Virus record (IMG/VR): IMGVR_UViG_3300037316_000027
Coordinates: 62,001 to 126,000 of that record
From: a virus
Length of the DNA stretch: 64,000 nt
Reading direction: 5' to 3' (one strand)
Shown in pieces: positions 6,379 to 63,601 of the stretch. The position numbers and the translations under genes were made by a program. Below the pieces are notes generated by a model that did no database searches, was not told the origin of the DNA, and worked only from the letters and a program-made list of their open reading frames with translations. The first letter of the stretch is position 1. The number at the start of each line of letters is the position of its first letter.

Positions 6379-6714
6379 CTACATCAGGTCCTCAACGCTG
6401 TCGCGAATGCTCGCGGCCTCACGATCTGTGATACCAGCAAGGTGCTCGTCGGGCGTCGCCGACTTCGTCTCGACCTTGTCCGCTACAAGATCAATCACAG
6501 CCCGGGGCTTCTTCAGCTTCGCCGCCGTGGTGAGGGCGAGCATGACTGCCTTGACCGGGTCCGCATCCTCGGCAAAGCTCACGCCGAAATGACTGCACAT
6601 CGCGAACGTCGCACGCCATGTCTTGCCGCCCTGCGACGGCACAAGCGAGATATGACTGATCTCGCCTCGTTTGGCTAGATCGCGGATGGTGTCCTCAAGC
6701 GTCGGCATCGTCAT
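6379..6714 (-). CDS. Unknown protein ending VEDLM
   Basis: I chose the ATG at 6714; 6708 is the alternative. The 111-residue product starts MTMPTLEDTIRDLAKRGE, then an alpha/beta segment (HISLVPSQGGKTWRATFAM). It ends DSVEDLM, a C-terminal motif found on four other unrelated proteins in this window. No coupled gene lies directly after its stop, so here the motif cannot be explained by an embedded ribosome-binding site. Function is unknown. Confidence 0.75.
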   Translation of the reverse strand: MTMPTLEDTIRDLAKRGEISHISLVPSQGGKTWRATFAMCSHFGVSFAEDADPVKAVMLALTTAAKLKKPRAVIDLVADKVETKSATPDEHLAGITDREAASIRDSVEDLM

Positions 6715-7635: not shown

Positions 7636-7814
7636 GCCACCCTCACTGCGTTGTTGTGAAGGTCCTGCCGGAGGTTCTGCGCTACGCGCTCGGCAACCGC
7701 CGGTCGCGCGTAGCGGCCGACTGTCTCCCAGATACGCCCGACCCGAACGCCGCTCGGCAGTTTGCCGGCGAGGGTCATGCACACTTGGACCTTGAATTTC
7801 GGCTTGCGGGTCAT
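7632..7814 (-). CDS. Small basic protein, 60 residues
   Basis: The product MTRKPKFKVQVCMTLAGK... is basic, with an N-terminal beta-strand and a C-terminal helix (VAERVAQNLRQDLHNN). It could be a small nucleic-acid-binding protein, but there is no family match. It overlaps both neighbours by 4 nt. Confidence 0.7.
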   Translation of the reverse strand: MTRKPKFKVQVCMTLAGKLPSGVRVGRIWETVGRYARPAVAERVAQNLRQDLHNNAVRVA

Positions 7815-8017
7815 TTGCTGTTCCTTGCGGTTTCACTAGCCAGATCACTGGCGATGCGGTCACTAACGTAGCGCAGGAACGTTTTGCGGTCCAGTTCTAC
7901 GTCGTCAAGACTGACATACGACGCCAGTGATTTCACCAAATCTGACACGGTAAGTTCGTGCTTGCGCAAGTCCCTGTCGTGATCGGCGCGTTCGTCTGGT
8001 GTGGCGTTGCGGGTCAT
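7811..8017 (-). CDS. Small charged helical protein; first gene of its transcript
   Basis: The 68-residue product (MTRNATPDERADHDRDLR...) is highly charged and helical. It is first behind the promoter at 8046-8074. The 8018-8104 gap upstream has no gene and contains that promoter. Function is unknown. Confidence 0.75.
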   Translation of the reverse strand: MTRNATPDERADHDRDLRKHELTVSDLVKSLASYVSLDDVELDRKTFLRYVSDRIASDLASETARNSK

Positions 8018-8045: not shown

Positions 8046-8108
8046 GGTGTAGTCGTTCGCCGACATTCCGTCAATCCAAAACGTCGGCGGTGGTTAACGT
8101 CGGGTTAA
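8046..8108 (-). promoter_or_regulatory. Leftward promoter with TTAA-N7-TTAAC box
   Basis: Read on the minus strand: TTGACG at 8074-8069, a 17-nt spacer, and TACACC at 8051-8046. A box TTAA-N7-TTAACC lies upstream with its half-sites at 8108-8105 and 8097-8094. The second half-site starts 23 nt before the -35, as at most other promoters of this phage. The box centre is near -62 from the predicted start. The TTAA-N7-TTAAC pattern matches the CtrA consensus. Confidence 0.6.
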
Positions 8109-9052: not shown

Positions 9053-9114
9053 AACATACACCCTCCCGGAGCGCATGCAAGCCAAACCACTCGGCATAGT
9101 TAACGCTTGGTTAA
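9053..9114 (-). promoter_or_regulatory. Leftward promoter with TTAA-N7-TTAAC box
   Basis: Minus strand: TTGCAT at 9080-9075, a 16-nt spacer, and TATGTT at 9058-9053. The box spans 9114-9100 with seven bases between the TTAA half-sites. Its second half-site starts exactly 23 nt before the -35. The core resembles the rightward promoter at 9168-9195: both have TTGCA, a GGGAG-containing spacer and GTGTATGTTG. The two form an inverted pair. Confidence 0.7.
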
Positions 9115-22439: not shown

Positions 22440-22702
22440 GATTTGGCATCCTCGATCTTGCAACTGAGATCATCAAGGTCACACTGTTCGAGTGCGTACT
22501 GCACTTCCTCCAACAGCGTCGCCGAGTTCTCGGCAGCAGTGCCCTTGTCGCCGCTCTGCATGTTCTCCGGCATGTTGTCGTAGAACTCGCGCTCTTCCGG
22601 CGCGACGGCTTCGATGATGTCCACCAAGGCCTCGAAGTCGGATTTGATTTTCTCGATCAGGTCTTGCGCCTTGGCAAGCTCTTTGCGGCGGGCGGCGTTC
22701 AT
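22436..22702 (-). CDS. Helical acidic protein, 88 residues
   Basis: It starts MNAARRKELAKAQDLIEKIK; two long helices flank EREFYDNMPENMQSGDKG. The pattern 'L..a...i..a...le....eE...ydN.PEsmq.sekg..aE' defines a small family widespread in phages and prophages, function unknown. ATGA overlap. Confidence 0.8.
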   Translation of the reverse strand: MNAARRKELAKAQDLIEKIKSDFEALVDIIEAVAPEEREFYDNMPENMQSGDKGTAAENSATLLEEVQYALEQCDLDDLSCKIEDAKS

Positions 22703-22866
22703 TGGCGATGGCTCTTGTGATCATGCTCGGTCGCGAGGATGCGCGCGCGGGTCAGCTTAATCTGGGTCATCAGGTCGTCGTTGATCGGCGAGGCTGATGT
22801 GATCCACAAGGTGCGCATGATCACGAGCTGATTGCTCAGTAGCAGGAGAAGGTCTTCGCGTGACAT
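22699..22866 (-). CDS. Small helical protein; first gene of the leftward operon
   Basis: The 55-residue product (MSREDLLLLLSNQLVIMRTL...) is helical and lies directly behind the promoter at 22902-22930, with a 36-nt leader. Function is unknown. Confidence 0.7.
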   Translation of the reverse strand: MSREDLLLLLSNQLVIMRTLWITSASPINDDLMTQIKLTRARILATEHDHKSHRQ

Positions 22867-22901
22867 CGTTCACTCCAGATTTGCCGGACCGGCGGAGCTT
22901 T

Positions 22902-22930
22902 TGCCTAGTTGAAAACCGGAACTGTGTCAA
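22902..22930 (-). promoter_or_regulatory. Leftward promoter of the 11.4-22.9 kb operon
   Basis: Minus strand: TTGACA at 22930-22925, a 17-nt spacer, and TAGGCA at 22907-22902. The spacer contains one copy of a 13-bp direct repeat. No TTAA-N7-TTAA box lies at the usual distance, so control differs from the other promoters. Confidence 0.65.
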
Positions 22931-22990
22931 GGGAAGTTTTTCTTAAACCCGAATTTTTAATTTTTCTGAATTCCGACTTGAAAACCGGAA
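22909..22990. repeat. Two 13-bp direct repeats flanking the leftward promoter
   Basis: TTGAAAACCGGAA occurs at 22909-22921 (inside the promoter spacer) and at 22978-22990, 69 bp apart. A protein bound to the first would block RNA polymerase, so the pair could be an operator with looping. This is inference. Confidence 0.55.
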
Positions 22991-23134
22991 GGTGTGTGCG
23001 CACAAGGGCACATAGCACTTTCGGCCGATCGCCGATTTTGGGGTCCTACCCCGTATGTCTGCGCCGCCACGGTAGCACCAACCTTGCCAGCCCCTCAAGC
23101 ACGCGCAGGTTGTAATTCATCATGTGGTTTATAA

Positions 23135-23515
23135 TTAAGGTTAATGGTTCGATCTGCTAACGTGGTTACTAGTTAAGGTTAATAGGCTCCCTACCCTAGG
23201 GCTGGCGTTAACGTTAATAGTTAAGGTTAATGCACGATAGTCTAGCGTAGCGCATGCTGGCGTTAACCTTAATAGTTAAGGTTAACGCCAAGTGGTATAG
23301 TAGTAGGGTTGACAGCCCCCTACAGGGGTGGTTAACCTTAATTAGTAACCCTACCTACAGCCGGGGGCTTGTGTAACGCCCTGATACAGGGTATAAGTGC
23401 TTGATATTGCTAGCCAAAGGGCGTTGGTAGGGTTAATAGTTAAGATTTACCTAGCTCCGTGTACGTTAAGGTTAATGAGTAAGGTTAACGCGCCCCTGAT
23501 TAGGGTTAATCTTAA
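23135..23515. repeat. TTAAGGTTAA repeat cluster, candidate origin or operator array
   Basis: Seven exact TTAAGGTTAA decamers occur: plus orientation at 23135, 23173, 23221, 23276 and 23466; minus orientation at 23263 and 23332. Two variants are TTAACGTTAA at 23208 and TTAATCTTAA at 23506. More partial copies (TTAATAGTTAAG near 23432) lie between. The cluster sits between the divergent operons in the largest non-coding stretch of the window (22867-24024). It also holds a small CCCC-TACA-GGGG hairpin near 23320. Iterons of a replication origin or a regulator array are the main readings. Confidence 0.75.
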
Positions 23516-23543
23516 CTATGTTGACAGCCGGCGCTTGACATGC

Positions 23544-23696
23544 ATGCGCTACGGTAGCAGATGGCGGATGCCAACTAAGCGGCGGAGCAACCATAGACCC
23601 GACAATCAATCGCTCATCATGTTCAGATGGTGTACCGAGCGGCTGAGCGATAATCAAATCAAGCACTTAAGAGCCGATTATACAGGAAACTTGTGA
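23544..23696 (+). CDS. Possible small basic protein, 50 residues
   Basis: The frame MRYGSRWRMPTKRRSNHRPD... ends TERLSDNQIKHLRADYTGNL, which could be a short DNA-binding helix. Base composition is less GC-rich than known genes and there is no ribosome-binding site. It may be chance within the intergenic hub. Confidence 0.25.
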   Translation: MRYGSRWRMPTKRRSNHRPDNQSLIMFRWCTERLSDNQIKHLRADYTGNL

Positions 23697-23719
23697 TGTT
23701 TTGCATGGTGGCCTTTCTG

Positions 23720-23753
23720 AGTATAGCCGATATACTGACACTTCCGATAGTGT
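23720..23753. promoter_or_regulatory. Two adjacent inverted repeats
   Basis: AGTATA-GCCGA-TATACT (23720-23736) is followed at once by ACACT-TCCGAT-AGTGT (23738-23753). Both could bind a dimeric regulator or form small hairpins. They lie about 200 bp upstream of the rightward promoter at 23953. The rest of 23754-23952 shows nothing I can name. Confidence 0.4.
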
Positions 23754-23952
23754 ATATCCTGTATTCTGTAGCATGAACTTAGAGAAGACAGTAAGGACCA
23801 TGTGTAACCGTGAATAAGCGATTGATTTGTCAACTATAAAAGCCTCTCACTCTTCATTGAGTTAATCACAGGCTTCACTGAGTACCTGAGTAGAAGATTG
23901 TCCAACAGTTTCAAGGATCGGCACCCGGCCAGCCCGCTCAAAGCGGCAAAAC

Positions 23953-23981
23953 TTGACAGTGTCAGAAACCCGTGATAATGA
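23953..23981 (+). promoter_or_regulatory. Rightward promoter with palindromic -35 region
   Basis: TTGACA at 23953-23958, a 17-nt spacer, and TAATGA at 23976-23981. The palindrome TGACAGTGTCA (23954-23964) covers most of the -35, a likely operator. It would drive the rightward block that starts at 24025. Confidence 0.65.
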
Positions 23982-24024
23982 CCCCAAACGACCCCTCAAA
24001 AACGACCCCTAAAAAGGCATCAAA

Positions 24025-24537
24025 ATGACGACAATTCGCCGACCACTCGCACGCTCCTATCCCGAGATCGCCGCCGCTCAAGGGCTGACAAACGCCGGCC
24101 ACGTGAACCGCACAGGCTTGAGCCGAGCCGAGCGAGCGGTGCTCGATGTTGGTCCACGGTCAAGGCGAGAGGCTACGGTAGAAGAGCAAATAGTCCGAAA
24201 CGAGAAATACGTGATCAGCCTTCTACGCCCGACAGCGGAGATTAACAACAGGGAGATCGAGCGGGACCGCGTCAAGCTTGCGGTGGTCCACAACACGGCC
24301 GACCAATTGGAGTTGACTGGTGCGGATCGGGACTACTTCGTTGCCAGTTACGGGACCGACAGCGGCACGATACGGGCTGCGAAAGCGGGAGGCCATCTCT
24401 TGACAGCGGTCAACTTGAAAGCCTCTGTAGGCGTTCCTGAGACGCCTTACGAGATGATGGAGCGCCTTGGCCTGACCGAACAGGAGCGCGAACGTCTCGG
24501 CGAATTCACCGTCACCATCACATGGGCGAGAGCTTGA
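24025..24537 (+). CDS. Unknown protein, 170 residues; first rightward gene
   Basis: It starts MTTIRRPLARSYPEIAAAQG. Residues 10-60 look like a helical, possibly DNA-binding domain (GHVNRTGLSRAERAVLDVG). The end, TPYEMMERLGLTEQERERLG, is a charged helix. Its position right behind the promoter with a palindromic operator would suit an early regulator, but no family is recognised. Confidence 0.8.
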   Translation: MTTIRRPLARSYPEIAAAQGLTNAGHVNRTGLSRAERAVLDVGPRSRREATVEEQIVRNEKYVISLLRPTAEINNREIERDRVKLAVVHNTADQLELTGADRDYFVASYGTDSGTIRAAKAGGHLLTAVNLKASVGVPETPYEMMERLGLTEQERERLGEFTVTITWARA

Positions 24538-30636: not shown

Positions 30637-30872
30637 GTGTCTCCCCTAGAATGTTGGATTGGGCGCTTAATGGCGTGCCGGTCTACATCCGAAAGCGTCC
30701 GATCGACGGCGCGGTCTACGCTACGACGTTTGACTTCTCTAAGTTCATTCGTGAAGCGGCGCTCGAAACGATGCGCGTGCACGTGCCGAAAAACGCGCTG
30801 AGAAACTGGGATGCTGCACAGGACCCGCGCGTAAAGAAAAAGATAGCGGAGTGGGAGCGCGCCAGCGCATGA
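30633..30872 (+). CDS. Unknown protein, 79 residues
   Basis: It starts MSVSPRMLDWALNGVPVYIR; an alpha/beta N-terminal half is followed by a charged helix. ATGA overlap. Function is unknown. Confidence 0.7.
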   Translation: MSVSPRMLDWALNGVPVYIRKRPIDGAVYATTFDFSKFIREAALETMRVHVPKNALRNWDAAQDPRVKKKIAEWERASA

Positions 30873-31072
30873 CCGATAAATTCACGATGCAATACGTTGA
30901 AGAGGAACGCGACCGTTGCGCGAAGCTCGTCGAGATGCTAATAGGCGAGCCGGACTTCCTGATGCATTGCATCGCGTACTGGATCAGGCCTGACGAAGTC
31001 GAGACGCGACGTGCTCGCTTCGAAGAGATGGACAACGTCATCGCCGTAGACAACTTTGAGGATTTGATGTGA
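30869..31072 (+). CDS. Unknown protein ending FEDLM, 67 residues
   Basis: It starts MTDKFTMQYVEEERDRCAKL. It ends VDNFEDLM, one of five unrelated proteins here with a C-terminal EDLM/DDLM. The codons GAG-GAT-TTG-ATG also supply GAGGA upstream of the GTG start of the next gene, so RNA function may help keep the motif. Confidence 0.7.
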   Translation: MTDKFTMQYVEEERDRCAKLVEMLIGEPDFLMHCIAYWIRPDEVETRRARFEEMDNVIAVDNFEDLM

Positions 31073-32261: not shown

Positions 32262-32455
32262 TCCATCGTCTCGTCATGCATGAGGACTTCTCGACGCACA
32301 CTCGCTGCGGCATTCGGCTCAGCGACAATGATACGCGGCTGACGTATGCTGGCGTAGAGATCGACACGACGCACTTCGACGCCCGGATCACGTGCCCCGA
32401 TTGTCGCGACCATTTCGTGCGCGTTACGAAGCCCAAACTCAGCATGGTGCGGTGA
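32258..32455 (+). CDS. Small zinc-finger-like protein, 65 residues
   Basis: It starts MIHRLVMHEDFSTHTRCGIR. It carries His, Cys and a later CPDCRDHF, the order seen in small phage zinc proteins of the 'H......CG......t......vtCp.C' type. Function is unknown. Confidence 0.75.
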   Translation: MIHRLVMHEDFSTHTRCGIRLSDNDTRLTYAGVEIDTTHFDARITCPDCRDHFVRVTKPKLSMVR

Positions 32456-32712
32456 TGTTTGGCCAGCTTACCATCGAGGAAGAGACGCGGCTCGGCACAC
32501 AGATGGCCGCTGTTTACAAGATCATGCGCGACGGTCAGTGGCACACCCCGCCGGAGATCATGGCGCGCGTTGTTGGCGGGACCGCTGCGATCACGGCACG
32601 CATCCGTGATCTTCGAAAGGAAAAGTTTGGCGGGTTCACGATCGAGCGTGACTACATCGAACGCGGGCTGTATCGCTATCGCATGATCGATCCCGTAGAG
32701 GATTTGATGTGA
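32455..32712 (+). CDS. Winged-helix-like protein ending VEDLM, 85 residues
   Basis: It starts MFGQLTIEEETRLGTQMAAV. Residues 22-75 (IMRDGQWHTPPEIMARVVGG, AITARIRDLRKEKFGG, YRYRMI) follow the 'l..g.w.t..ei......aSvtaRIRdLRk..fGg..ve' pattern of small phage winged-helix DNA-binding proteins. The end, DPVEDLM, repeats the shared C-terminal motif, and its codons again place GAGGA ahead of the next start. A regulator is likely. Confidence 0.8.
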   Translation: MFGQLTIEEETRLGTQMAAVYKIMRDGQWHTPPEIMARVVGGTAAITARIRDLRKEKFGGFTIERDYIERGLYRYRMIDPVEDLM

Positions 32713-35709: not shown

Positions 35710-36831
35710 ATGTCGAGATACACCAATCTTGAAAGTGCCGGTTCGTATCCGGCCCCCCGCTCCAATCCTGAACTCTATCTGGAAGTGTGTTCTGCGGGCG
35801 ACCCCCGCTACAAGGACATTCTCAAACACCACTACATCTGGGCCGGTGAGACAATCAAAGGTATACAGGGTCAACAAGTTCATTTTCTTATTTGGTACAA
35901 GGAAAAGATCGTTGGGGTGATCAGCGGCGCGAGCGCCGTCTATCTCACCGCTCCCCGAGATAAATTCTTTGGGCTGCATGGCAAACGCGCGACCAAAGGC
36001 AAGCCCGCAATCGGCAATCGAGAAAAGTGTCTGAATGGCATCGTCGATAATGTTGTGTTTAGGCTCGAAGATCATGAGAAAAATCTAGCTAGTCGGGTTC
36101 TCTCCCTCTGGGAGAAAAGCGTTGTTTGGGTCTGGGAAGCGCTTTACGGGACCAAGGTTTATGGTTTTGAAACCTTCGTTCTCGGCAACGGATCAATGAA
36201 ACAGGAAGAGGTTCCCGGAGCCGCGCCAGATAGTCGCGGGCGGCCAATCTTGCATGTTGTACGCGTCGATGACCCCGAAGGTATCGTGCGTAAAGGCTTT
36301 ATCTATCGTGCAACCGGCTGGTCGTTGGCTGGGACAACTTTCGGGAGTGCTAAAGGGCACGACGGGGTCGGACTAACCGGCGGCAAAAATTACCGCGAGC
36401 GCGTCTCGCCGCAGCTACACAAAGACCTAATCGAGTTGGGGGTTCTGGAAGAGGGTGATGACAATCGCATCAACGACCCATTCCGAAGAAGGAACGTGCC
36501 AACGAAAGATGTTTATTGCAAGTGGGTTCCCGGATACTCGTCTCCGATAGAAAGCAATTACATCTCGTCGTGGAAGGCGGGCACTGCGAATGGGACGCCG
36601 GAAGAGAAAGCGTTGGCTAAGTGGCGGACTGATTTTCGGCGCAAACTGCTCGGCACGAGATTTTCTCGGGACGGAAAGGCGCTTGTATATGAAAACCTCG
36701 AACAGACAATTTGCGGGCGGGTCGAGTGGAATGCACCCGGAGCGCCGGGTGACACTAGACGCCGTAAAATGCGACAATCTATCCGTGCACCCTCTGAGCG
36801 TGAAAATTTACGGTCGCCCAAAACCGACTAA
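35710..36831 (+). CDS. Mom/DUF4338-like acetyltransferase-fold protein
   Basis: The 373-residue product matches the GNAT-related DUF4338 family (DruA of Druantia, distant from Mom of phage Mu). KHHYIWAGETIKG is the usual HHYL start. IVGVISGASAVYLTAPRDKF is the central strand with the 'RD' step, VDNVVFRLEDHEKNLASRVL the NLASrvL helix, and GFETFVL and FIYRATGWSLAGTTFGSAKG the closing block. A long C-terminal extension is unique. With ParB-like genes next to it, base modification or protection of phage DNA is the best inference. GC content seems lower than nearby. Confidence 0.75.
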   Translation: MSRYTNLESAGSYPAPRSNPELYLEVCSAGDPRYKDILKHHYIWAGETIKGIQGQQVHFLIWYKEKIVGVISGASAVYLTAPRDKFFGLHGKRATKGKPAIGNREKCLNGIVDNVVFRLEDHEKNLASRVLSLWEKSVVWVWEALYGTKVYGFETFVLGNGSMKQEEVPGAAPDSRGRPILHVVRVDDPEGIVRKGFIYRATGWSLAGTTFGSAKGHDGVGLTGGKNYRERVSPQLHKDLIELGVLEEGDDNRINDPFRRRNVPTKDVYCKWVPGYSSPIESNYISSWKAGTANGTPEEKALAKWRTDFRRKLLGTRFSRDGKALVYENLEQTICGRVEWNAPGAPGDTRRRKMRQSIRAPSERENLRSPKTD

Positions 36832-37459
36832 AGAATTCCTGCGTAGTATTGAGACGCACGGGCTCTTGCAACCCATCATCATAAACGACCAAGGTCACCA
36901 TGTGATCCTGTCTGGGAGTACACGGGCGGAAGCGTGGCGAATGCTATGGGAGCAGAAGCGCCTCAAGTCAAGCTGGATACCCTGTCGCATTCTTCATCTT
37001 TCGCCGCTGGAGGCTGAGCGCCTCGTTATAGAGAGCAACCGTCAGCGGGTAAAGACAGCGGGGCAGAAGGCGCGAGAGAGCAACGAGCTTGTGAGGATTT
37101 TCTCGGCCGATCAAGATGTCAGGAGCGCGATTGCCCGGATCGCCCGTGAAACCAAACAGGGCGTCCGAACGGTCAACAAGCAGATCATGATCGTGACGGA
37201 GGCAGGCGCGCGGAACGTAGTTGCACAAAACGCTCTCGCCGAACTGGATAAAAACCAAACGAGCGTGAGCGCCGCCTACCGTGCGATCAGTCCGCAAAAA
37301 CGGACCTTGCGCAATTCTCCGTTAGGGGGTAGGGTTGCGGCACTTGAGACGCTCGCCCGGAAGCTCCCTAATGATCTCAAGGACCCGACGAACAAAGAGT
37401 TTCTAGCCGAGGCCGTGGCGAGAATAGGCGCAGCGGTCCGCCTACTGCACCGGAGTTAA
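36731..37459 (+). CDS. ParB-like nuclease-domain protein
   Basis: The start is uncertain (ATG 36689, ATG 36731 or GTG 36749); all lie inside the upstream gene. Residues 15-100 form a ParB/Srx domain: VHPLSVKIYGRPKPT, FLRSIETHGLLQPIIIN, HVILSGSTRAEAWRML. A helical domain follows (SPLEAERLVIESNRQRVKTA), then a HTH-like region (SAIARIARETKQGVRTVNKQ). In phages, ParB-like proteins often accompany DNA-modification genes and may act as NTP-using clamps or nucleases. The long overlap implies co-translation with the DUF4338 gene. Confidence 0.8.
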   Translation: MHPERRVTLDAVKCDNLSVHPLSVKIYGRPKPTKEFLRSIETHGLLQPIIINDQGHHVILSGSTRAEAWRMLWEQKRLKSSWIPCRILHLSPLEAERLVIESNRQRVKTAGQKARESNELVRIFSADQDVRSAIARIARETKQGVRTVNKQIMIVTEAGARNVVAQNALAELDKNQTSVSAAYRAISPQKRTLRNSPLGGRVAALETLARKLPNDLKDPTNKEFLAEAVARIGAAVRLLHRS

Positions 37460-38075: not shown

Positions 38076-39092
38076 ATGGCTCGCACTTCTATTGTTAAGT
38101 TGCCCCTCGCCAAGCTTTTTGTCGATGGGGTGGAAGAGAAAATTTTCGTGGGCGAAGTACGCCATGCTCACGGAGAAGAAGGCGCTGGCTATCAGCGCGA
38201 TCCCTATCGCCGCAGAAAGTGGATCAAGCTCCACGCGGCGAAGTTCAATAGCGCGCTGATGCGCGTCATTGAAGTCTCGGCGCGCGGTGACGGCACTTTC
38301 GCCATCATCGACGGCGGAGGGCGCTGGGCCATGGCCCAGATCGCCAAGAAGACGGACCTTCTTTGTCGCGTACATCATGGACTGACGCGCGAGGAAGAGG
38401 CGACGCTCTTCAAGGACTTCGACAAGGAAATCTATCGTCTGCGAGGGATTGATACCTTCCTCGCCATGATAGGCGCGAAAGACGAAACCGCTCTCGCTAT
38501 TCAGAGCGCGGTCCTCCCTTACGGGATTGCGGTCGCTGGCAAGGGCACGCTCAAGTGCGTTGGTCAGTTTCTTTCGGTCAAGAAGGGTTCGCCGCACGGC
38601 TTGCGGCTGCTGTCATCGGTCGCGAACATTCTCGCGACTGCATACGGCAACTATGATCCCAAGACCGGCGAGTTCGGCAAGGGCTGTGGTGTGATCGATG
38701 GCTATATCGTCATCGCATACGCCACGATCCTCGACAGCGTCCTCGAAGCTATCGAGGACGGTGGTGTTCCTGAGGGACAGTATGCGGCATGGGAGAAGCG
38801 TCTCGCTTTCATCGCCTCGCGGACTGCTCCCGCCAAGATCGCGGAACACCTGAGCAAGGGCGGGTTTCTCCCCAAGAGCATCCCGGCTGCTCCACTTGCC
38901 GCTCACTACCTCGTCAACCGCCCGGTAACGTCCGGGGTGGGCAAGGACCCGGCCCCGGTCAAGTTCAAGCCCACGAAATACGATCTCGGAGCCAACCGGG
39001 TCAACACCTGCTACTCGACCGGGAAGACCTTCTCGTCCCGCATATCTGAAACTACCGCGCTGAATGAGGACGATCCCGCCGACGCGGCATAA
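38076..39092 (+). CDS. ParB-like (DUF6551-type) protein, 338 residues
   Basis: AAAGGAG lies 5 nt before the ATG at 38076. Residues 40-95 read YQRDPYRRRKWIKLHAAKFN, ...VIEVSARGDGTFAIIDGGGR, a degenerate ParB fold in which GGGR replaces the usual GxHR. The rest is helical (LTREEEATLFKDFDKE), like phage DUF6551/ParB relatives. A 87-bp gap separates it from the modification cassette. It may take part in the same system or in replication next to the primase gene. Confidence 0.75.
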   Translation: MARTSIVKLPLAKLFVDGVEEKIFVGEVRHAHGEEGAGYQRDPYRRRKWIKLHAAKFNSALMRVIEVSARGDGTFAIIDGGGRWAMAQIAKKTDLLCRVHHGLTREEEATLFKDFDKEIYRLRGIDTFLAMIGAKDETALAIQSAVLPYGIAVAGKGTLKCVGQFLSVKKGSPHGLRLLSSVANILATAYGNYDPKTGEFGKGCGVIDGYIVIAYATILDSVLEAIEDGGVPEGQYAAWEKRLAFIASRTAPAKIAEHLSKGGFLPKSIPAAPLAAHYLVNRPVTSGVGKDPAPVKFKPTKYDLGANRVNTCYSTGKTFSSRISETTALNEDDPADAA

Positions 39093-39111: not shown

Positions 39112-39137
39112 AAAGCCGGGCAGCAATGCCCGGCTTT
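39112..39137. terminator. Two-way terminator between converging genes
   Basis: AAAGCCGGGCA, loop GCAA, TGCCCGGCTTT: a perfect 11-bp hairpin with A and T ends. It separates the rightward ParB-like gene from the leftward primase-helicase gene, whose stop codon overlaps its edge. Confidence 0.85.
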
Positions 39138-41529
39138 ATTCTTGCGGGTCGCCGAACTCGTTGGTAGCGTTATCGTCGTCATCGTCGATCGGCTTGCCCT
39201 TGCCAGCCTTCTGCTTGTCGGCCTCGTAGATCGCGCCCAGAGGCTTCGGCGTGAGGTTCTTCAAGATGCCGCCCTTGCCGTTGATCGCATACAGGCGCGG
39301 CCGTGCGCCGTTGGCGAGAATGGCCTGCCCCATCTCTTCAGCATCGAACTTCCGCAACAGGATGCTTCTGATATTGGCGCTCAAGCGCGGTGCCCGATGC
39401 TCGATCCGCTTCGGCACCAGAATGGCAATATCGTCGAGAGCGACCAGTCGGCCGTTGAACGGGAATATGTCGCGCTGGTCTTCCATCCAGCGCGCAAGCT
39501 CGTCTTGGCCGGCAGCGATCATAGAAGTCTTGGCCGCCGTGAGGGGCGCGGCTGAAGCGCCGCTGTATGTGCCGTAGTCCCAGTTTCCGAGCTGGTATGC
39601 GACGGCCGCGATAGCAGCCGGGTCGTTGAGCTTGGTGACGTAGAGGTTGGTATAGTACGCGATCGACGCCGGAGAGTTCTTCCCGTAGCGCGGCGTTGCC
39701 TTCGTGTTGATAACGAGATAGCGCCGATCGGTGTCGTCGAGATTGAGAGCCGCCTCATGGTTTGACATCGCGAAGATGCCGAAACAGTTTTCGACATTGC
39801 GCTGGGGCAGGTTCTTTTCGTTGACGCTGATCATGTCCTGCGTGATCAGCGGATGCAGCTTGTTGGCGACTTCGGTTTTGTCGATCGCGCGCAACTCTTC
39901 GATAACGAGAAGCTTCGATCGGATGGCCCAACCATTGAAGTCGCCGTGGAGATCGGACTGATTGATGTTGGCGACGTTCCGCAGGTTGAGAATGCGGCCG
40001 AGCATTTCGACGATGTAGCTTTTGCCGGTGCCCTGAGCGTCACCTTGGATCAGCAACGCGTGCTTCGGTTTCTCAGTGAGGTTCTGGAGCAGCCACGCCA
40101 TCCAGTTCATAACCATCATGCGGTCCTCTTCGAGCGGGAAGAGGTATTCGAGATGGTCGTTCCACCACGACACGTCGCCCTCTGCGGGCGTGATGTTCGG
40201 GGGCACGTACATATTGAAGACATCGCCGCTGATACGCTGATCGAGGCCCGGCTTGTAGGCGACGCTCTTGAACCGGGCGATCGTGCCCTTCTTCCGGCGT
40301 AGCAGAACGTCCGCGATGTTCTTGGTGCTCTTCGACCCGAGGATGTTGTTGTACTGGCCGTTGAAGGCCTCCTTGTCCCACACGTTGGTCGTGTCGCCCT
40401 TTTCGATAAATCGCTTGAGCCCGCCGACCCAGACCCACTCCTTGATCAGCTCGTTCTCCTTGAGAAACCGCTCTCGCTTTTCAGGCGACTGAGCGGCGAC
40501 CTCCTGACGCGCGGCTGCCCGGGCTTCGGCTGCCGTGTCGGGGTCGGCGCTGTTCGTGAATTCGTAGGTTTTAGTTTCTCGGTTGTAGGTGCCCATCCGC
40601 GTGGGGTTAATCTCGGGCTCGTCGTCGGCGAAGTCGGCCTCTGCCGTTTTGCCGCCAGTCTTCGAGAGGCTGGCGTAGTTGAAGGCGTTCTCGACCTTCC
40701 GCTCCATGTCGTCGCGGTCCCATTCGGGAACGCAACGAGGATTGTAATACTCACAGAGAATATCAAGCGAGACCGCAGGACTGATCCCGATATCCTTGAG
40801 GTACATCGCGGTCTTCAGTGTGTTGAAGTCGCCGCCCGAACCCTCGATAGCCGGGACTGCATCCTGCAACAGGAAGTCAATCGCCAGTTCGATGTTCGCT
40901 GGCTGATCCAGCTCAACCACGACTTCACCCGCGTTGGCGATGCGTGACTTGGCTTTGGAGTTTTTGATCGTGTCGTAAATCCACTGCGGACAGTTGACCG
41001 CATCGGCATCATTCGTGGTGTAGCTCGTGCCGTCCGCGAATACGCATCCGGGGATCAGCGTGTAGTTCGGACTGTCGATATCTTTGCCGATGCCGTTCAA
41101 TCCCAACGCCATGACGTGCGCAGGGTGGTTCTCGTCGGCCCAACCTTGATAGACCATATGCCAGCCGCCGGACGGCGTCTCAGTGCGCTCGGTCGCGTCC
41201 CATCCGTAGATCAAGTCGAGAACGGCGAAGGTCTCGTCGCCGACCTTGCCTTTGGTTTTGTTAGTGTCAACGTCGGCGACAAGGAGCTTTGATTTCGCAT
41301 GCGCGACGCCCCAGTTGCAGCCGGGAAACTTTTTCGCCCACGCGATGATTTGCTTCGGATCGTTCGAACAGTTACCGTCGAGATTGTCTCGAACACAGGG
41401 CGGGAACTTTTTCAAAGCCTTGATCGGGAAAATGTAGCGCGTATACATATGCCGATCGAGATAGGCGAGCGCGAGCGCGAGGCTTTCAAAAATCATGGGG
41501 CGGGTTCTCACGGGGCCGGGGACGATCAA
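39136..41529 (-). CDS. Primase-polymerase/SF3 helicase fusion
   Basis: The 797-residue product joins an N-terminal AEP primase-polymerase domain (about 30-210; VADVD metal-binding residues, TPSGGWHMVYQG with the catalytic His) to a C-terminal D5-like SF3 helicase (about 480-680; Walker A GDAQGTGKS, Walker B LLVIEEL, sensor AMSNHE). It should prime and unwind phage DNA. The TTG start at 41529 has AAGG-type signals; ATGs at 41496 and 41448 are alternatives. It is the only large leftward gene in the right arm, so its expression is separate. Confidence 0.9.
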   Translation of the reverse strand: MIVPGPVRTRPMIFESLALALAYLDRHMYTRYIFPIKALKKFPPCVRDNLDGNCSNDPKQIIAWAKKFPGCNWGVAHAKSKLLVADVDTNKTKGKVGDETFAVLDLIYGWDATERTETPSGGWHMVYQGWADENHPAHVMALGLNGIGKDIDSPNYTLIPGCVFADGTSYTTNDADAVNCPQWIYDTIKNSKAKSRIANAGEVVVELDQPANIELAIDFLLQDAVPAIEGSGGDFNTLKTAMYLKDIGISPAVSLDILCEYYNPRCVPEWDRDDMERKVENAFNYASLSKTGGKTAEADFADDEPEINPTRMGTYNRETKTYEFTNSADPDTAAEARAAARQEVAAQSPEKRERFLKENELIKEWVWVGGLKRFIEKGDTTNVWDKEAFNGQYNNILGSKSTKNIADVLLRRKKGTIARFKSVAYKPGLDQRISGDVFNMYVPPNITPAEGDVSWWNDHLEYLFPLEEDRMMVMNWMAWLLQNLTEKPKHALLIQGDAQGTGKSYIVEMLGRILNLRNVANINQSDLHGDFNGWAIRSKLLVIEELRAIDKTEVANKLHPLITQDMISVNEKNLPQRNVENCFGIFAMSNHEAALNLDDTDRRYLVINTKATPRYGKNSPASIAYYTNLYVTKLNDPAAIAAVAYQLGNWDYGTYSGASAAPLTAAKTSMIAAGQDELARWMEDQRDIFPFNGRLVALDDIAILVPKRIEHRAPRLSANIRSILLRKFDAEEMGQAILANGARPRLYAINGKGGILKNLTPKPLGAIYEADKQKAGKGKPIDDDDDNATNEFGDPQE

Positions 41530-42904: not shown

Positions 42905-42966
42905 ACCCGGCTTGACTAGCCGGGTCTTTCGGTCTAAGAGCCATTATCGTTAACGAATTCTTAACC
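42905..42966 (+). promoter_or_regulatory. Terminator hairpin overlapping a promoter and TTAA-N7-TTAAC box
   Basis: ACCCGGCT-N5-AGCCGGGT (42905-42925) followed by CTTTC can end the previous transcript. TTGACT at 42912-42917, inside the hairpin, a 17-nt spacer and TAAGAG (42935-42940) form a promoter. A perfect TTAA-N7-TTAACC box (half-sites at 42950 and 42961) lies at about +10 from the predicted start, where binding should repress rather than activate. Confidence 0.55.
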
Positions 42967-42980
42967 CGGAGTTGTCCCCC

Positions 42981-43490
42981 ATGTCCGATGCCCTGCTTAC
43001 CGAAATCTCGAAAAAGCTTAGCGACATTCACGCTACGCTGAAGACCGGGGGCACTCCTGCCGCTGGTGCCAACAAGCCCGCCGCCGCCGCCGTCGCTGGC
43101 GCTGCCGTCCCGGATGCTGCCGCTAAGGCCGCCGCCGCTGCCAAGGTGAAGGCTGCCGCCGAAGCGAAGGCCAAGGCCGAAGCCGAAGCGAAGGCGAAGG
43201 CCGCTGCCGCTGCGAAGCCCGCTGCCGGTCCCGCGTCTGGCACCAAGGCTCCGGGTGGGAAGTACACGGTCGATCAGGTCCGTGAGAAAATCCGCGAAGT
43301 CGCGACCAACCCTGCGCTTGGCAAATCGTCCGCATCCGATATTCTGGATCAGGACGGGGCCGGCGTGAAGTCGGTGAAGGACCTGAAGCCAGAGAACTAT
43401 GACAAGGTCTATGAAGCGTGTCAGGTCGCGCTTCAGAGCGAAGGCTCGGCCGCTGCCGCTGCGCCCGCGCCCGAAGATGATTTGATGTAA
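42981..43490 (+). CDS. Ala/Lys-rich coiled-coil protein ending EDDLM
   Basis: GGAG lies about 8 nt before the ATG. Residues 1-25 are helical. Residues 35-90 are an Ala/Lys/Glu repeat (AKAKAEAEAKAKAAAAAKP), like histone H1-type or TolA-type linkers. Residues 95-155 are a small domain (YTVDQVREKIREVATNPALG, KDLKPENYDKVYEACQVAL) found at the C-terminus of several phage DNA-associated proteins. It ends PEDDLM. It may bind or bridge DNA. Confidence 0.8.
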   Translation: MSDALLTEISKKLSDIHATLKTGGTPAAGANKPAAAAVAGAAVPDAAAKAAAAAKVKAAAEAKAKAEAEAKAKAAAAAKPAAGPASGTKAPGGKYTVDQVREKIREVATNPALGKSSASDILDQDGAGVKSVKDLKPENYDKVYEACQVALQSEGSAAAAAPAPEDDLM

Positions 43491-46096: not shown

Positions 46097-46540
46097 ATGC
46101 ATTCGATATACGTGATCACGGCCCCGGATGGGAGGGCCTATGTTGGCCGCACGAGTGGGTTTCCTAGCGCCCGCTTCGAGAAGCACGCTAGAGACAGCTC
46201 GCCAATTGGCGTAGCCATCCGCAAATTTGGCCGAGACGCAATGAAACTGGAAGTTCTCAAGAGCGATGTTCCAGCCAATGAAATTATCGCTCTGGAAGAG
46301 CACACAATTAGCGATCTTCGAACGGTTGTTCCTCATGGATTTAACCGATCTGAGAGCGGCGGCAAGCGCGCCGTTCATGAGGGAAAAAGCATTACCTTAA
46401 ACCTTAGAACAACAGCCGCAGTCAAGCAGATGGTTGATGCGCTTGCGAAAGAAGATGAGCGGTCTATTGCTCAGATAGTTGAGCGGCTGATAAAAGCGGC
46501 CTACCGTGAGAGCGGTCTTGACGTAGAGGATTTGATGTGA
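46097..46540 (+). CDS. GIY-YIG nuclease fused to ribbon-helix-helix domain, ends VEDLM
   Basis: Residues 1-85 are a GIY-YIG domain (SIYVITAPDGRAYVGRTSG, ARFEKH with the Arg, EIIALEEHTIS with the catalytic Glu). Residues 95-140 (SITLNLRTTAAVKQMVDALA, RSIAQIVERLIKAAYRES) have the strand-helix-helix form of a CopG/Arc-type DNA-binding domain. The end is DVEDLM. Most phage GIY-YIG enzymes use NUMOD or HTH modules, so this fusion is unusual. GC content appears lower than nearby genes. Confidence 0.85.
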   Translation: MHSIYVITAPDGRAYVGRTSGFPSARFEKHARDSSPIGVAIRKFGRDAMKLEVLKSDVPANEIIALEEHTISDLRTVVPHGFNRSESGGKRAVHEGKSITLNLRTTAAVKQMVDALAKEDERSIAQIVERLIKAAYRESGLDVEDLM

Positions 46541-61372: not shown

Positions 61373-61525
61373 ATGCGGCAGCAGTGGATTTTTGGGCTCG
61401 TTTTGACCGTGTTCATTCTGGCGATGACGGTCGCGATTGTCATGATCCCCGGGCGCGACCATCAAACGCGCGATTACGAGTGGCGGACCCAGCACGAGAA
61501 ATACCCCGCTGGCGACCGGGATTAA
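61373..61525 (+). CDS. Single-helix membrane protein, 50 residues
   Basis: The product MRQQWIFGLVLTVFILAMTV... has one transmembrane helix and a charged 25-residue tail. A TATACT-like element upstream (61342-61347) might serve as a -10. Its stop codon forms the first half of the next TTAA-N7-TTAACC box. Function is unknown. Confidence 0.6.
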   Translation: MRQQWIFGLVLTVFILAMTVAIVMIPGRDHQTRDYEWRTQHEKYPAGDRD

Positions 61526-61584
61526 CCGCCTGTTAACCATTATCGCATTGGGTGCTTGCTCTTCTCCGGGAGAACATCTAGGTT
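61522..61584 (+). promoter_or_regulatory. Promoter with perfect TTAA-N7-TTAACCAT box
   Basis: TTGCTC at 61556-61561, a 17-nt spacer, TAGGTT at 61579-61584. The box (61522-61540) is the best in the window and includes the full TTAACCAT half-site of the CtrA consensus. TTAAC starts 23 nt before the -35, box centre near -62. It drives the AAA+ ATPase gene. Confidence 0.75.
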
Positions 61585-61623: not shown

Positions 61624-63294
61624 ATGACCGCGACCAAGACCATCTCGAAAGGCCAGACTGCGGCTGCCGACGTTGCTTCACTTTTGCGCGCCCGCAACTC
61701 GTTGCTCTGGATCGTCACCCGTGAAGAGCATCGCGTCGAAGGCTTTCTGTTTGAAGCCGCTGCCGCTGCTGGCTACAAGACCATGTTCTGGGACGTAGCG
61801 CAGGGCGTCACCACGATCAACGGTGAGCCTGCCAAGAACGGCAACCAGCCCATCGGTGGTGAGGACGTTGAAACGACGCTCGCCGCGATCCGTACTGCTT
61901 CCGATGTCAAGCCCAAGGCTGACGACAAAGGCAACCGCACGGTGTGGGTCATGCGCGATCTCCCCCGCTGGCTCGGCGACGGCATTGCCGGCGCGAAGCC
62001 GATGCGCCAGCTCCGCAATCTCTCGAAGCATCTCCCGCGCGTTGACCGCAAGTCGGCGCAAGCGATCATCATCCTGACCACGGAGAGCAACATCCCGGCC
62101 GATCTCGCCGGCCATGCGACGGTCATCGAATGGCCGCTCCCGGATCGTTCGGAAATCGAAAAGGTGCTGACCGACGCAATCAACTCGTTGCCGGAGTACG
62201 AGACGGACAAGGAAACGGGCGAACCAATCTTGACGAAGCCCATCCGCTCGCTTGCTGCGACCCCGGAGACGCGTGAGACCGCGATTGACGCGGCGGTCGG
62301 TCTGACTTCGGACGAGGCTGCCTCATGCTTCGCCAAGTCGCTCGTGCAAACACGTGCGATCGACCCGGTCCTCGTGTCGAATGAAAAGAAACGAGTGATC
62401 GCCCGCGAGCGCGTGCTCGAATGGATTGATCCCCTCAAGGAGGGGCTCGATGCAGTCGGCGGTCTCGATAACGTCAAGGCGTTTCTCAACGAGCGCAAGG
62501 ACGCGTATACTCCGGCCGCACGCGAGTACGGCCTGCCCGCTCCGAAGGGCATCGTGCTGACCGGCATGTCCGGCTGCGGAAAGACGCTTACCGCCAAGGC
62601 CCTCGCCACGGGCTGGAGCGTGCCTCTTCTGAGGCTCGATCTGGGCGCGCTCAAGGACAAGTTCGTCGGCGGGAGCGAAGGCAACCTCCGCAAGGCGCTA
62701 AAGGTGATCGAAGCCATTGGCCGTTGCGTGGTCCTGATCGACGAGATCGAGAAGGCGATGCAGGGTGCGACTTCTGGCTCCGCTGACGGCGGCGTCTCCG
62801 CCGATGCTCTCGGTACGATCCTGTCATGGATGCAGGATCATCCGGCCGGCGCTTTCATCATCGCGACTGCGAACGATGTCAGCTCGCTTCCGCCGGAGCT
62901 GCTGCGCAAGGGCCGTTTCGACGAAGTGTTCTTTGTCGATTTGCCGAACGCAATCGAGCGCAAGGGCGTGCTCAAGGCCGCGCTCAAGGCCAACGGCCGC
63001 GACAAGGTCAAGATCAACTTCGGTGAAGTCGCTGACGCGACCGAGGACTTCACGGGCTCGGAAGTTGCCGAGCTGGTATCGACCGCCCTGTATGCGGGCT
63101 TCGCTGACAGTGTCCGCGAAATCACAACCGAGGACTTGATCCTCGCCGCGTCCAAGGTCGTGCCGCTGGCGAAGACCAAGGCCGACAAGATGACTGAGCT
63201 GCGCAAGTGGGGTAAGGCCAACGCTCGCCCGGCCACCAGTGCGACGAAGCTGGAAGTTGTTTCTGGCGGAAGTCGTCAGATCGATCTCGGCTAA
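61624..63294 (+). CDS. AAA+ ATPase, FtsH/SpoVK-like module
   Basis: AGGAAA precedes the ATG at 61624 (an ATG at 61618 is in frame). The 556-residue product has an N-terminal domain of about 250 residues (LLRARNSLLWIVTREEHRVE). The AAA+ core follows: Walker A GMSGCGKT, Walker B VVLIDEIEKAM, sensor 1 FIIATANDVSSLP and arginine finger LRKGRFDEVFF, then a small helical lid. No protease domain is fused. Such ATPases remodel proteins; in phages the target is unknown. It has the best regulated promoter of the window. Confidence 0.92.
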   Translation: MTATKTISKGQTAAADVASLLRARNSLLWIVTREEHRVEGFLFEAAAAAGYKTMFWDVAQGVTTINGEPAKNGNQPIGGEDVETTLAAIRTASDVKPKADDKGNRTVWVMRDLPRWLGDGIAGAKPMRQLRNLSKHLPRVDRKSAQAIIILTTESNIPADLAGHATVIEWPLPDRSEIEKVLTDAINSLPEYETDKETGEPILTKPIRSLAATPETRETAIDAAVGLTSDEAASCFAKSLVQTRAIDPVLVSNEKKRVIARERVLEWIDPLKEGLDAVGGLDNVKAFLNERKDAYTPAAREYGLPAPKGIVLTGMSGCGKTLTAKALATGWSVPLLRLDLGALKDKFVGGSEGNLRKALKVIEAIGRCVVLIDEIEKAMQGATSGSADGGVSADALGTILSWMQDHPAGAFIIATANDVSSLPPELLRKGRFDEVFFVDLPNAIERKGVLKAALKANGRDKVKINFGEVADATEDFTGSEVAELVSTALYAGFADSVREITTEDLILAASKVVPLAKTKADKMTELRKWGKANARPATSATKLEVVSGGSRQIDLG

Positions 63295-63350: not shown

Positions 63351-63542
63351 GTGAAAAACTTTATCGCAGACGGCCAAAACCGTTACTTCATCCTCAATGG
63401 CGGCGGGCGCATGGCTATCAAACCTCTGGGACAACGACGCCCGGTTCTTCATGCCAGCAAGCTCTCTTTCAAACACGACGCGGCTCGCCAGCGGCAGTAC
63501 ATGCGAAACCAACACCACGGCGCTTCACGCGGGCGGGCTTAA
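63351..63542 (+). CDS. Small basic protein, 63 residues
   Basis: A GTG start with GGAG and AAGG upstream gives MKNFIADGQNRYFILNGGGR. Strand-rich first half, Arg/His-rich end. Its stop codon lies in the next TTAA-N7-TTAAC box. Function is unknown. Confidence 0.75.
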   Translation: MKNFIADGQNRYFILNGGGRMAIKPLGQRRPVLHASKLSFKHDAARQRQYMRNQHHGASRGRA

Positions 63543-63601
63543 CCCTTCATTAACTATCCCCTGAGCTTGTACGTGACAAGCTCAAGGTTCTCAGCTAGAA
63601 C
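63539..63601 (+). promoter_or_regulatory. Promoter with TTAA-N7-TTAAC box
   Basis: GTGACA at 63573-63578, a 17-nt spacer, TAGAAC at 63596-63601. The perfect TTAA-N7-TTAACTAT box (63539-63557) has TTAAC 23 nt before the -35. It drives the last gene of the window. Confidence 0.65.

What the first reader, a model, noticed from the sequence alone, without database searches (positions are those of the whole stretch)
22867..24024. Intergenic hub with seven exact TTAAGGTTAA repeats on both strands
The largest non-coding stretch lies at the switch point between leftward and rightward operons. It carries seven exact decamers plus two variants within 381 bp, often arranged TTAA-N2-TTAA-N3-TTAA-N2-TTAA. 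The spacing differs from the N7 promoter boxes, although the half-site TTAA is shared. It could be the replication origin (iterons), a switch operator, or a sink that titrates the same regulator away from its promoters.
Basis: partly seen in the sequence, partly recalled or inferred. Interest (0 to 1): 0.75.

Follow-up and report, generated by a model that had tools for sequence, protein, structure and literature searches.

The report
Phage control region with spaced TTAA repeats
A 1.2-kb control region in a phage that probably infects alphaproteobacteria carries a strictly spaced TTAA repeat code that recurs beside the early promoters of phages from unrelated groups but is essentially absent from bacterial chromosomes, so it most likely lets these phages read a host (CtrA-type) cell-cycle regulator rather than start DNA replication.

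Summary
Observation confirmed. Seven exact TTAAGGTTAA plus two N2 variants lie in 23135-23515, and the exact decamer occurs nowhere else in the 126.8-kb phage. The unit is TTAA-N2-TTAA, often paired as a 23-29 bp dyad (GCRTTAACSTTAATNATTAASGTTAAYGC). The array sits in the same divergent gap in at least eight relatives, its sites kept while the spacers diverge. The dyad also occurs in otherwise different viral contigs and in phages Delta and MMDA13; single decamers occur in Lacusarx and phiCbK. Two scans of 84,980 bacterial genomes found 0 and 5 (non-alphaproteobacterial) hits. Where units are dispersed, most lie 31-70 bp upstream of an early promoter's -35, often with a CtrA half- or full box between. 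Delta's published CtrA-bound, CtrA-repressed probe consists of these decamers alternating with N7 boxes. So it is best read as an operator array for a host regulator of the CtrA pathway (CtrA itself or a partner), controlling the two early operons. Replication origin is not supported: GC skew merely follows gene direction, no DnaA boxes were found, and the same units are dispersed at promoters elsewhere. The binder is unproven. This is a new variant of the known CtrA gap-region ('LPEG') phages.

The parts
22867..24024 (.). Divergent control region (hub), 1158 bp, between leftward and rightward early operons
   Evidence: gene calls; same arrangement in relatives
22902..22930 (-). Putative leftward early promoter TTGACA-N17-TAGGCA
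   Evidence: sequence; TGTCAA on the + strand at a similar place in most relatives; not tested
23040..23055 (.). Conserved block GGGGTCCTACCCCGTA left of the array, unknown role
   Evidence: hub alignment
23135..23144 (+). decamer TTAAGGTTAA
23173..23182 (+). decamer TTAAGGTTAA
23208..23230 (.). dyad module TTAACGTTAA-N3-TTAAGGTTAA (perfect spacing)
23263..23285 (.). dyad module TTAACCTTAA-N3-TTAAGGTTAA (perfect spacing; 29-bp near-palindrome with flanks)
23332..23341 (-). decamer TTAAGGTTAA
23466..23488 (+). direct module TTAAGGTTAA-N3-GTAAGGTTAA (one mismatch)
23506..23515 (.). variant TTAATCTTAA, right end of the array
23953..23981 (+). Putative rightward early promoter TTGACA-N17-TAATGA
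   Evidence: sequence; not tested
22699..22866 (-). first leftward ORF, 55 aa, unknown
24025..24537 (+). first rightward ORF, 170 aa, no Pfam/PHROG match
8094..8108 (.). TTAA-N7-TTAA (CtrA-type) box, intergenic, 77 bp upstream of gene 7811-8017(-)
9100..9114 (.). TTAA-N7-TTAA box in a divergent intergenic region
42950..42964 (.). TTAA-N7-TTAA box upstream of 42981-43490(+)
61522..61536 (.). TTAA-N7-TTAA box upstream of the AAA ATPase gene 61624-63294(+)
63539..63553 (.). TTAA-N7-TTAA box, intergenic

Best explanation
The hub is a regulatory operator array, not an iteron origin. Its unit is TTAA-SS-TTAA, typically doubled at 13-bp offset into a dyad, and it is read by a DNA-binding protein of the alphaproteobacterial host that belongs to the CtrA cell-cycle pathway. 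CtrA-P loading cooperatively on closely spaced half-sites is the single best candidate; an unidentified partner regulator is about as likely. Occupancy of the array sets when the divergent early operons are transcribed, tying the infection programme to host cell-cycle state. Shown by sequence: the unit, its spacing, conservation, near-absence from bacterial genomes, and promoter-proximal placement in other phages. Shown by others: CtrA binds and represses the Delta promoter built of these decamers plus N7 boxes. Inferred: the identity of the binder on the N2/N3 form, the sign of regulation, and the host of this phage.
For: Same array in the same divergent gap in G001, G002, G004, G005, G015, G019, G020 and G024, sites kept while spacers differ. 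94 modules with a clean dyad logo in 21 records, duplicates G001 and G025 left out. Exact module: 17 viral contigs versus 0 in 257 Gb of bacterial and archaeal genomes; degenerate dyad: 18 viral contigs versus 5 non-alphaproteobacterial bacterial hits. Known phages: Delta 8 decamers, all in its gap; MMDA13 2, in its gap; Lacusarx 12, all within 120.8-129.8 kb; phiCbK 2, in its terminal repeat. Position: 31/31/31 and 44-55 bp to the -35 in Lacusarx; mostly about 50, 60 or 70 bp in G016, G014 and G021, commonly with TTAACCAT or an N7 box in between. The DELTA_120 upstream sequence (the 81-bp EMSA and lacZ target of Mascolo et al. 2022, PMC9437464) is a chain of three N2 decamers alternating with N7 gaps; there CtrA-P binds and CtrA represses, and a residual shift in another probe was ascribed by the authors to CtrA on orphan TTAA half-sites. 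N7 CtrA boxes in seven related records are intergenic in 13 of 14 cases. No non-replication, non-virion protein family found is common to this phage, Delta and MMDA13 except a 120-aa protein with no DNA-binding signature; no Trans_reg_C or HTH_3 protein in this phage, which favours a host binder.
Against: The hub itself has no N7 pair, the only spacing with direct CtrA evidence. Bacterial genomes essentially lack the dyad, which is odd for the site of a host regulator. Promoters in G021 carry both an N7 box and the dyad at separate positions, arguing that the dyad's binder is not CtrA. In this phage the array is about 200 bp and 440 bp from the two predicted early promoters, not at the 31-70 bp seen elsewhere. 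The host is inferred (closest relative is a Roseobacter phage, GANTC avoidance), not known. Periodicity of distances is only modest (R=0.45, 81 of 5000 in the null) and observations within one phage are not independent. Lacusarx and phiCbK carry single decamers, not the full dyad.
Confidence: 0.55

Rival explanations
1. Operator array of a phage-encoded regulator (repressor/activator or titration sink) whose gene is too diverged or too short for profile searches.
For: Full dyad essentially absent from bacterial genomes but recurrent in viruses. Several bearers are distantly related through virion genes, so descent of site and regulator together is possible. Delta does encode a Trans_reg_C winged-helix protein.
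Against: No shared regulator found among G000, Delta and MMDA13; phiCbK and Lacusarx belong to a different phage group yet carry the decamer.
Confidence: 0.22
2. Replication origin: the repeats are iterons for a phage initiator and the hub is where replication starts.
For: Cluster of direct and inverted repeats in the largest gap, AT-rich flank, cumulative skew minimum nearby.
Against: Third-position GC skew follows coding strand nearly everywhere, including embedded genes, in seven related genomes; no DnaA boxes; same units dispersed at promoters in other phages; no Rep-type initiator seen among the proteins scanned.
Confidence: 0.12
3. Architectural or segregation site (ParB/parS-like centromere, nucleoid-protein loading, packaging).
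For: ParB-like proteins encoded at 36590-37459 and 38076-39092; multi-copy dyads resemble centromere arrays.
Against: Promoter-linked placement in other phages; no ParA searched for or seen among annotated proteins; ParB-like domains are common in phages without partition (own knowledge).
Confidence: 0.08

Closest known systems
CtrA-box gap regions of 'LPEG' phages (Brevundimonas phage vB_BsubS-Delta, Sphingomonas phage MMDA13; Mascolo et al. 2022, PMC9437464)
   Same: About 1.2-kb gap between divergent gene blocks with a dense TTAA cluster; Delta and MMDA13 in fact carry the same TTAA-SS-TTAA units; N7 boxes also present in this phage.
   Different: Published motif is TTAA-N7-TTAA; in this hub there is no N7 pair, the spacing is N2/N3. 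The paper counts non-N7 TTAAs as half-sites and its text as read here does not describe the N2-N3-N2 dyad.
phiCbK-like terminal-repeat promoters (phiCbK, Sphingobium phage Lacusarx)
   Same: TTAA-SS-TTAA decamers confined to the terminal-repeat/early region, in Lacusarx about one per promoter.
   Different: No full dyad; in Lacusarx mostly dispersed single decamers rather than one hub.
Caulobacter chromosomal origin (CtrA sites that silence replication)
   Same: TTAA-based CtrA sites clustered in one non-coding control region (own knowledge).
   Different: N7 sites there; DnaA boxes there, none here.
Iteron origins (plasmid/P1 type)
   Same: Clustered short repeats in one non-coding region.
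   Different: Short 6/7-bp half-site spacing, both orientations, no initiator recognised, same unit at promoters elsewhere.

Membership tests
CtrA-regulated gap region (LPEG type) | Large gap between divergent gene blocks with strongly localised TTAA sites | tested here: met
CtrA-regulated gap region (LPEG type) | Canonical TTAA-N7-TTAA sites concentrated in the gap | tested here: not met
   0 N7 pairs in the hub; the five N7 boxes lie at other intergenic places
CtrA-regulated gap region (LPEG type) | CtrA-P binds and changes transcription | not testable with these tools
   shown by others for Delta, phiCbK and Cp1R7A-A1 promoters, not for this hub
CtrA-regulated gap region (LPEG type) | Alphaproteobacterial host with CtrA | tested here: inconclusive
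   closest phage RDJL3 infects Roseobacter; GANTC 2 observed versus 461 expected; host not identified
Iteron replication origin | Repeats confined to the origin, near an initiator gene, with an AT-rich element and DnaA boxes | tested here: not met
   units dispersed at promoters in other phages; no DnaA box; no initiator recognised
Iteron replication origin | Strand-composition switch caused by replication | tested here: not met
   third-position skew follows gene direction
Operator array of a phage-encoded regulator | Cognate regulator gene shared by motif-bearing phages | tested here: inconclusive
   profile searches found none in common; a very diverged regulator is not excluded
ParB/parS centromere | Cognate ParA/ParB operon with sites nearby and ParB binding | not tested
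   two ParB-like proteins exist 12-15 kb away; binding not testable here

The most novel reading that the evidence does not exclude
The TTAA-N2-TTAA-N3-TTAA-N2-TTAA dyad is the site of a second, still unidentified host regulator that phages of unrelated groups have independently recruited next to CtrA boxes, making early phage promoters two-input gates on host cell-cycle state; the dyad is used by phages and hardly ever by bacterial chromosomes.
Probability: 0.33. Interest if true: 0.82.

Novelty: new variant of a known kind. Interest (0 to 1): 0.62.

Why it matters
It shows that TTAAs previously counted as orphan CtrA half-sites in alphaproteobacterial phages follow a strict second spacing rule shared by phages of different groups, with the decamer present even in the laboratory phage phiCbK. 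That makes a concrete, quickly testable prediction about which host protein phages read to time infection to the cell cycle, and supplies a marker (the dyad) for finding such phages in metagenomes.

Tried and rejected
Cumulative GC skew as origin evidence: the minimum is near the hub but third-position skew follows coding strand in seven genomes, so rejected. DnaA boxes: none within one mismatch. Phage-encoded regulator by shared families: only a 120-aa protein without a DNA-binding signature (f98) joins this family, Delta and MMDA13 apart from virion and replication proteins; Trans_reg_C and HTH_3 absent from this phage. Protein next to the hub (346 aa) as a probe for relatives: none found. 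Direct DNA similarity to known phages: none. CenR as the binder: its published motif is TGA-N8-TGA, so rejected. MucR and the XRE family (RtrA/RtrB/CdxA/CdxB/TgrL): the texts read give no motif letters, undecided. Literature search for the decamer itself: no relevant paper among the 20 of 30 listed. Structure prediction was not run because no candidate binder was singled out.

Full report
What is there. The window is bases 62001-126000 of a 126,820-bp virus record. Between 22867 and 24024 no gene is called; genes to the left run leftward and genes to the right run rightward. Within 23135-23515 lie seven exact TTAAGGTTAA and two further TTAA-N2-TTAA units. The exact decamer occurs nowhere else in the record. 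Against dinucleotide shuffles 0.48 matches with up to one mismatch are expected in the whole window and 14 are found; against random placement of the same number of TTAAs in the hub, nine N2 pairs are never reached in 2000 trials.

Anatomy of the unit. Adjacent TTAAs are 6 bp apart inside a decamer and 7 bp apart between the two decamers of a module (N2-N3-N2). The two inner bases are CC, GG or CG in nearly all modules. From 94 modules in 21 records (two duplicate records left out) the dyad consensus is GCRTTAACSTTAATNATTAASGTTAAYGC.

Conservation. A protein search with the 473-aa exonuclease fetched relatives. Four of them have the same decamer cluster, and a pattern scan added more; records G000, G001, G002, G004, G005, G015, G019, G020 and G024 share many protein families and each has the array in a divergent gap (G001 and G002 are nearly identical). 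In an alignment of the hubs the modules line up while the spacers change in length and sequence. Each hub is enriched in N2 pairs on its own (at most 3 of 2000 random placements reach the observed count).

Beyond the family. The exact paired pattern hits 17 viral contigs and no contig in a collection of 84,980 bacterial and archaeal species genomes. A degenerate dyad hits 18 viral contigs and five bacterial contigs, four of them Mesotoga or other Thermotogales and one Gilliamella, none alphaproteobacterial. These scans are exact-pattern searches over one genome per species, so weaker host sites could be missed. In several viral contigs (G014/G025, G016, G021) the units are dispersed, about one cluster per gene start. 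Among isolated phages, Brevundimonas phage Delta has eight decamers, all in its gap; Sphingomonas phage MMDA13 two; Sphingobium phage Lacusarx twelve, all in its last 10 kb; Caulobacter phage phiCbK two in its terminal repeat; CcrColossus and Roseobacter phage RDJL3 none. The full dyad is present in Delta and MMDA13 but not in Lacusarx or phiCbK.

Position relative to promoters. In Lacusarx seven isolated decamers lie 31, 31, 31, 55, 54, 46 and 44 bp before the -35 of the phage's promoter box. In G016, G014 and G021 the last unit lies mostly about 50, 60 or 70 bp before a -35/-10 pair, commonly with TTAACCAT or a TTAA-N7-TTAA box between. The combined periodicity near 10 bp is modest (R=0.45, 81 of 5000 null draws) and not independent within phages. 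These placements are what upstream operators show, and are not what iterons show. In the hub of this phage the array lies further from the two predicted early promoters (about 200 and 440 bp), so action there would need internal promoters, looping or spreading; in four relatives (two of them nearly identical) a TATAGT hexamer follows a decamer at 13-14 bp, a possible internal promoter, not tested; in this phage the corresponding spacing is 10 bp.

Link to CtrA. TTAA-N7-TTAA is the CtrA motif (PMC9437464; PMC4287350). This phage has five such boxes, all intergenic, and 13 of 14 in seven related records, this one included, are intergenic. N7 boxes and N2 decamers occur together in most of the phages examined and both are absent from RDJL3, though G016 and G019 lack N7 pairs. 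The sequence upstream of DELTA_120, the target used by Mascolo and colleagues for gel shift and reporter tests, is a chain of N2 decamers alternating with N7 gaps (the 68-aa ORF with ATG at 87129 was identified here from its published length and place). They found CtrA-P binding and about four- to six-fold de-repression when CtrA is impaired. They also ascribe a residual shift in another probe to CtrA on orphan TTAA half-sites. Thus a CtrA-bound, CtrA-repressed promoter containing these decamers is already known, although the N7 gaps in it suffice to explain binding.

Who binds the N2/N3 form. No virus-encoded regulator common to this phage, Delta and MMDA13 was found: the families in common are virion proteins and one 120-aa protein without DNA-binding signature, with replication proteins shared with Delta only. 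This phage has no Trans_reg_C and no HTH_3 protein at the thresholds used. This favours a host protein. Against CtrA itself: no N7 in the hub, and in G021 the N7 box and the dyad occupy separate places in the same promoter. Against any host protein: bacterial genomes hardly ever contain the dyad. I put about equal weight on CtrA and on an unknown partner.

Replication origin. The cumulative skew has its minimum near the hub, but third-codon-position skew has one sign on nearly all rightward genes and the other on nearly all leftward genes, including genes embedded in the opposite block, in seven genomes. Skew is therefore uninformative about the origin. No DnaA box was found in nine hubs.

Host. 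The nearest annotated relative by polymerase, portal and primase is Roseobacter phage RDJL3 (43%, 47%, 32% identity). GANTC, the CcrM site, is almost absent (2 observed, 461 expected), in line with an alphaproteobacterial host (inference).

Verdict. The thing is best described as a CtrA-pathway operator array with a spacing code that differs from the published N7 code: a new variant of a known kind. The decisive open point is the binder.

Noticed in passing
whole record G000 and relatives: GANTC (CcrM methylation site) is almost absent: 2 observed versus 461 expected in G000, 0 versus 99-333 in G001, G002, G004, G005, G015 and G024, while GATC is over-represented (1075 versus 461); G020 is near normal.
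   Followed up: partly
right half of the hub: equivalents in G005, G015, G019, G020: A second, phage-type-specific set of short direct repeats (about 8-bp units, e.g. ACTCAGACACTCAGACA in G019, CTGGCACACTGGCACG in G020, CCGAGAA in G015) lies between the TTAA array and the rightward genes; it changes sequence from phage to phage, like an immunity-type operator.
   Followed up: partly
window 6379-6714(-), 30869-31072(+), 32455-32712(+), 46097-46540(+) and relatives: Unrelated small proteins share short C-terminal peptides: -[VIF]EDLM-like endings on 17 proteins in nine related phages (4 here), and NRFSGLD[LI] at or near the C-terminus of 9 proteins in G004, G005, G015 and G024.
   Followed up: no
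window 39136-41496: A Prim-Pol plus DUF5906 primase-helicase gene runs leftward inside the otherwise rightward replication half.
   Followed up: no
window 36590-37459 and 38076-39092: Two ParB-like/DUF6551 proteins near each other.
   Followed up: no
just right of the array in G004, G005, G019, G024: A conserved non-coding string TTAATCATAACTCTAAAT adjoins the array; in this phage it is diverged.
   Followed up: no
L027:1112-2479: RtcB-type RNA ligase gene.
   Followed up: no
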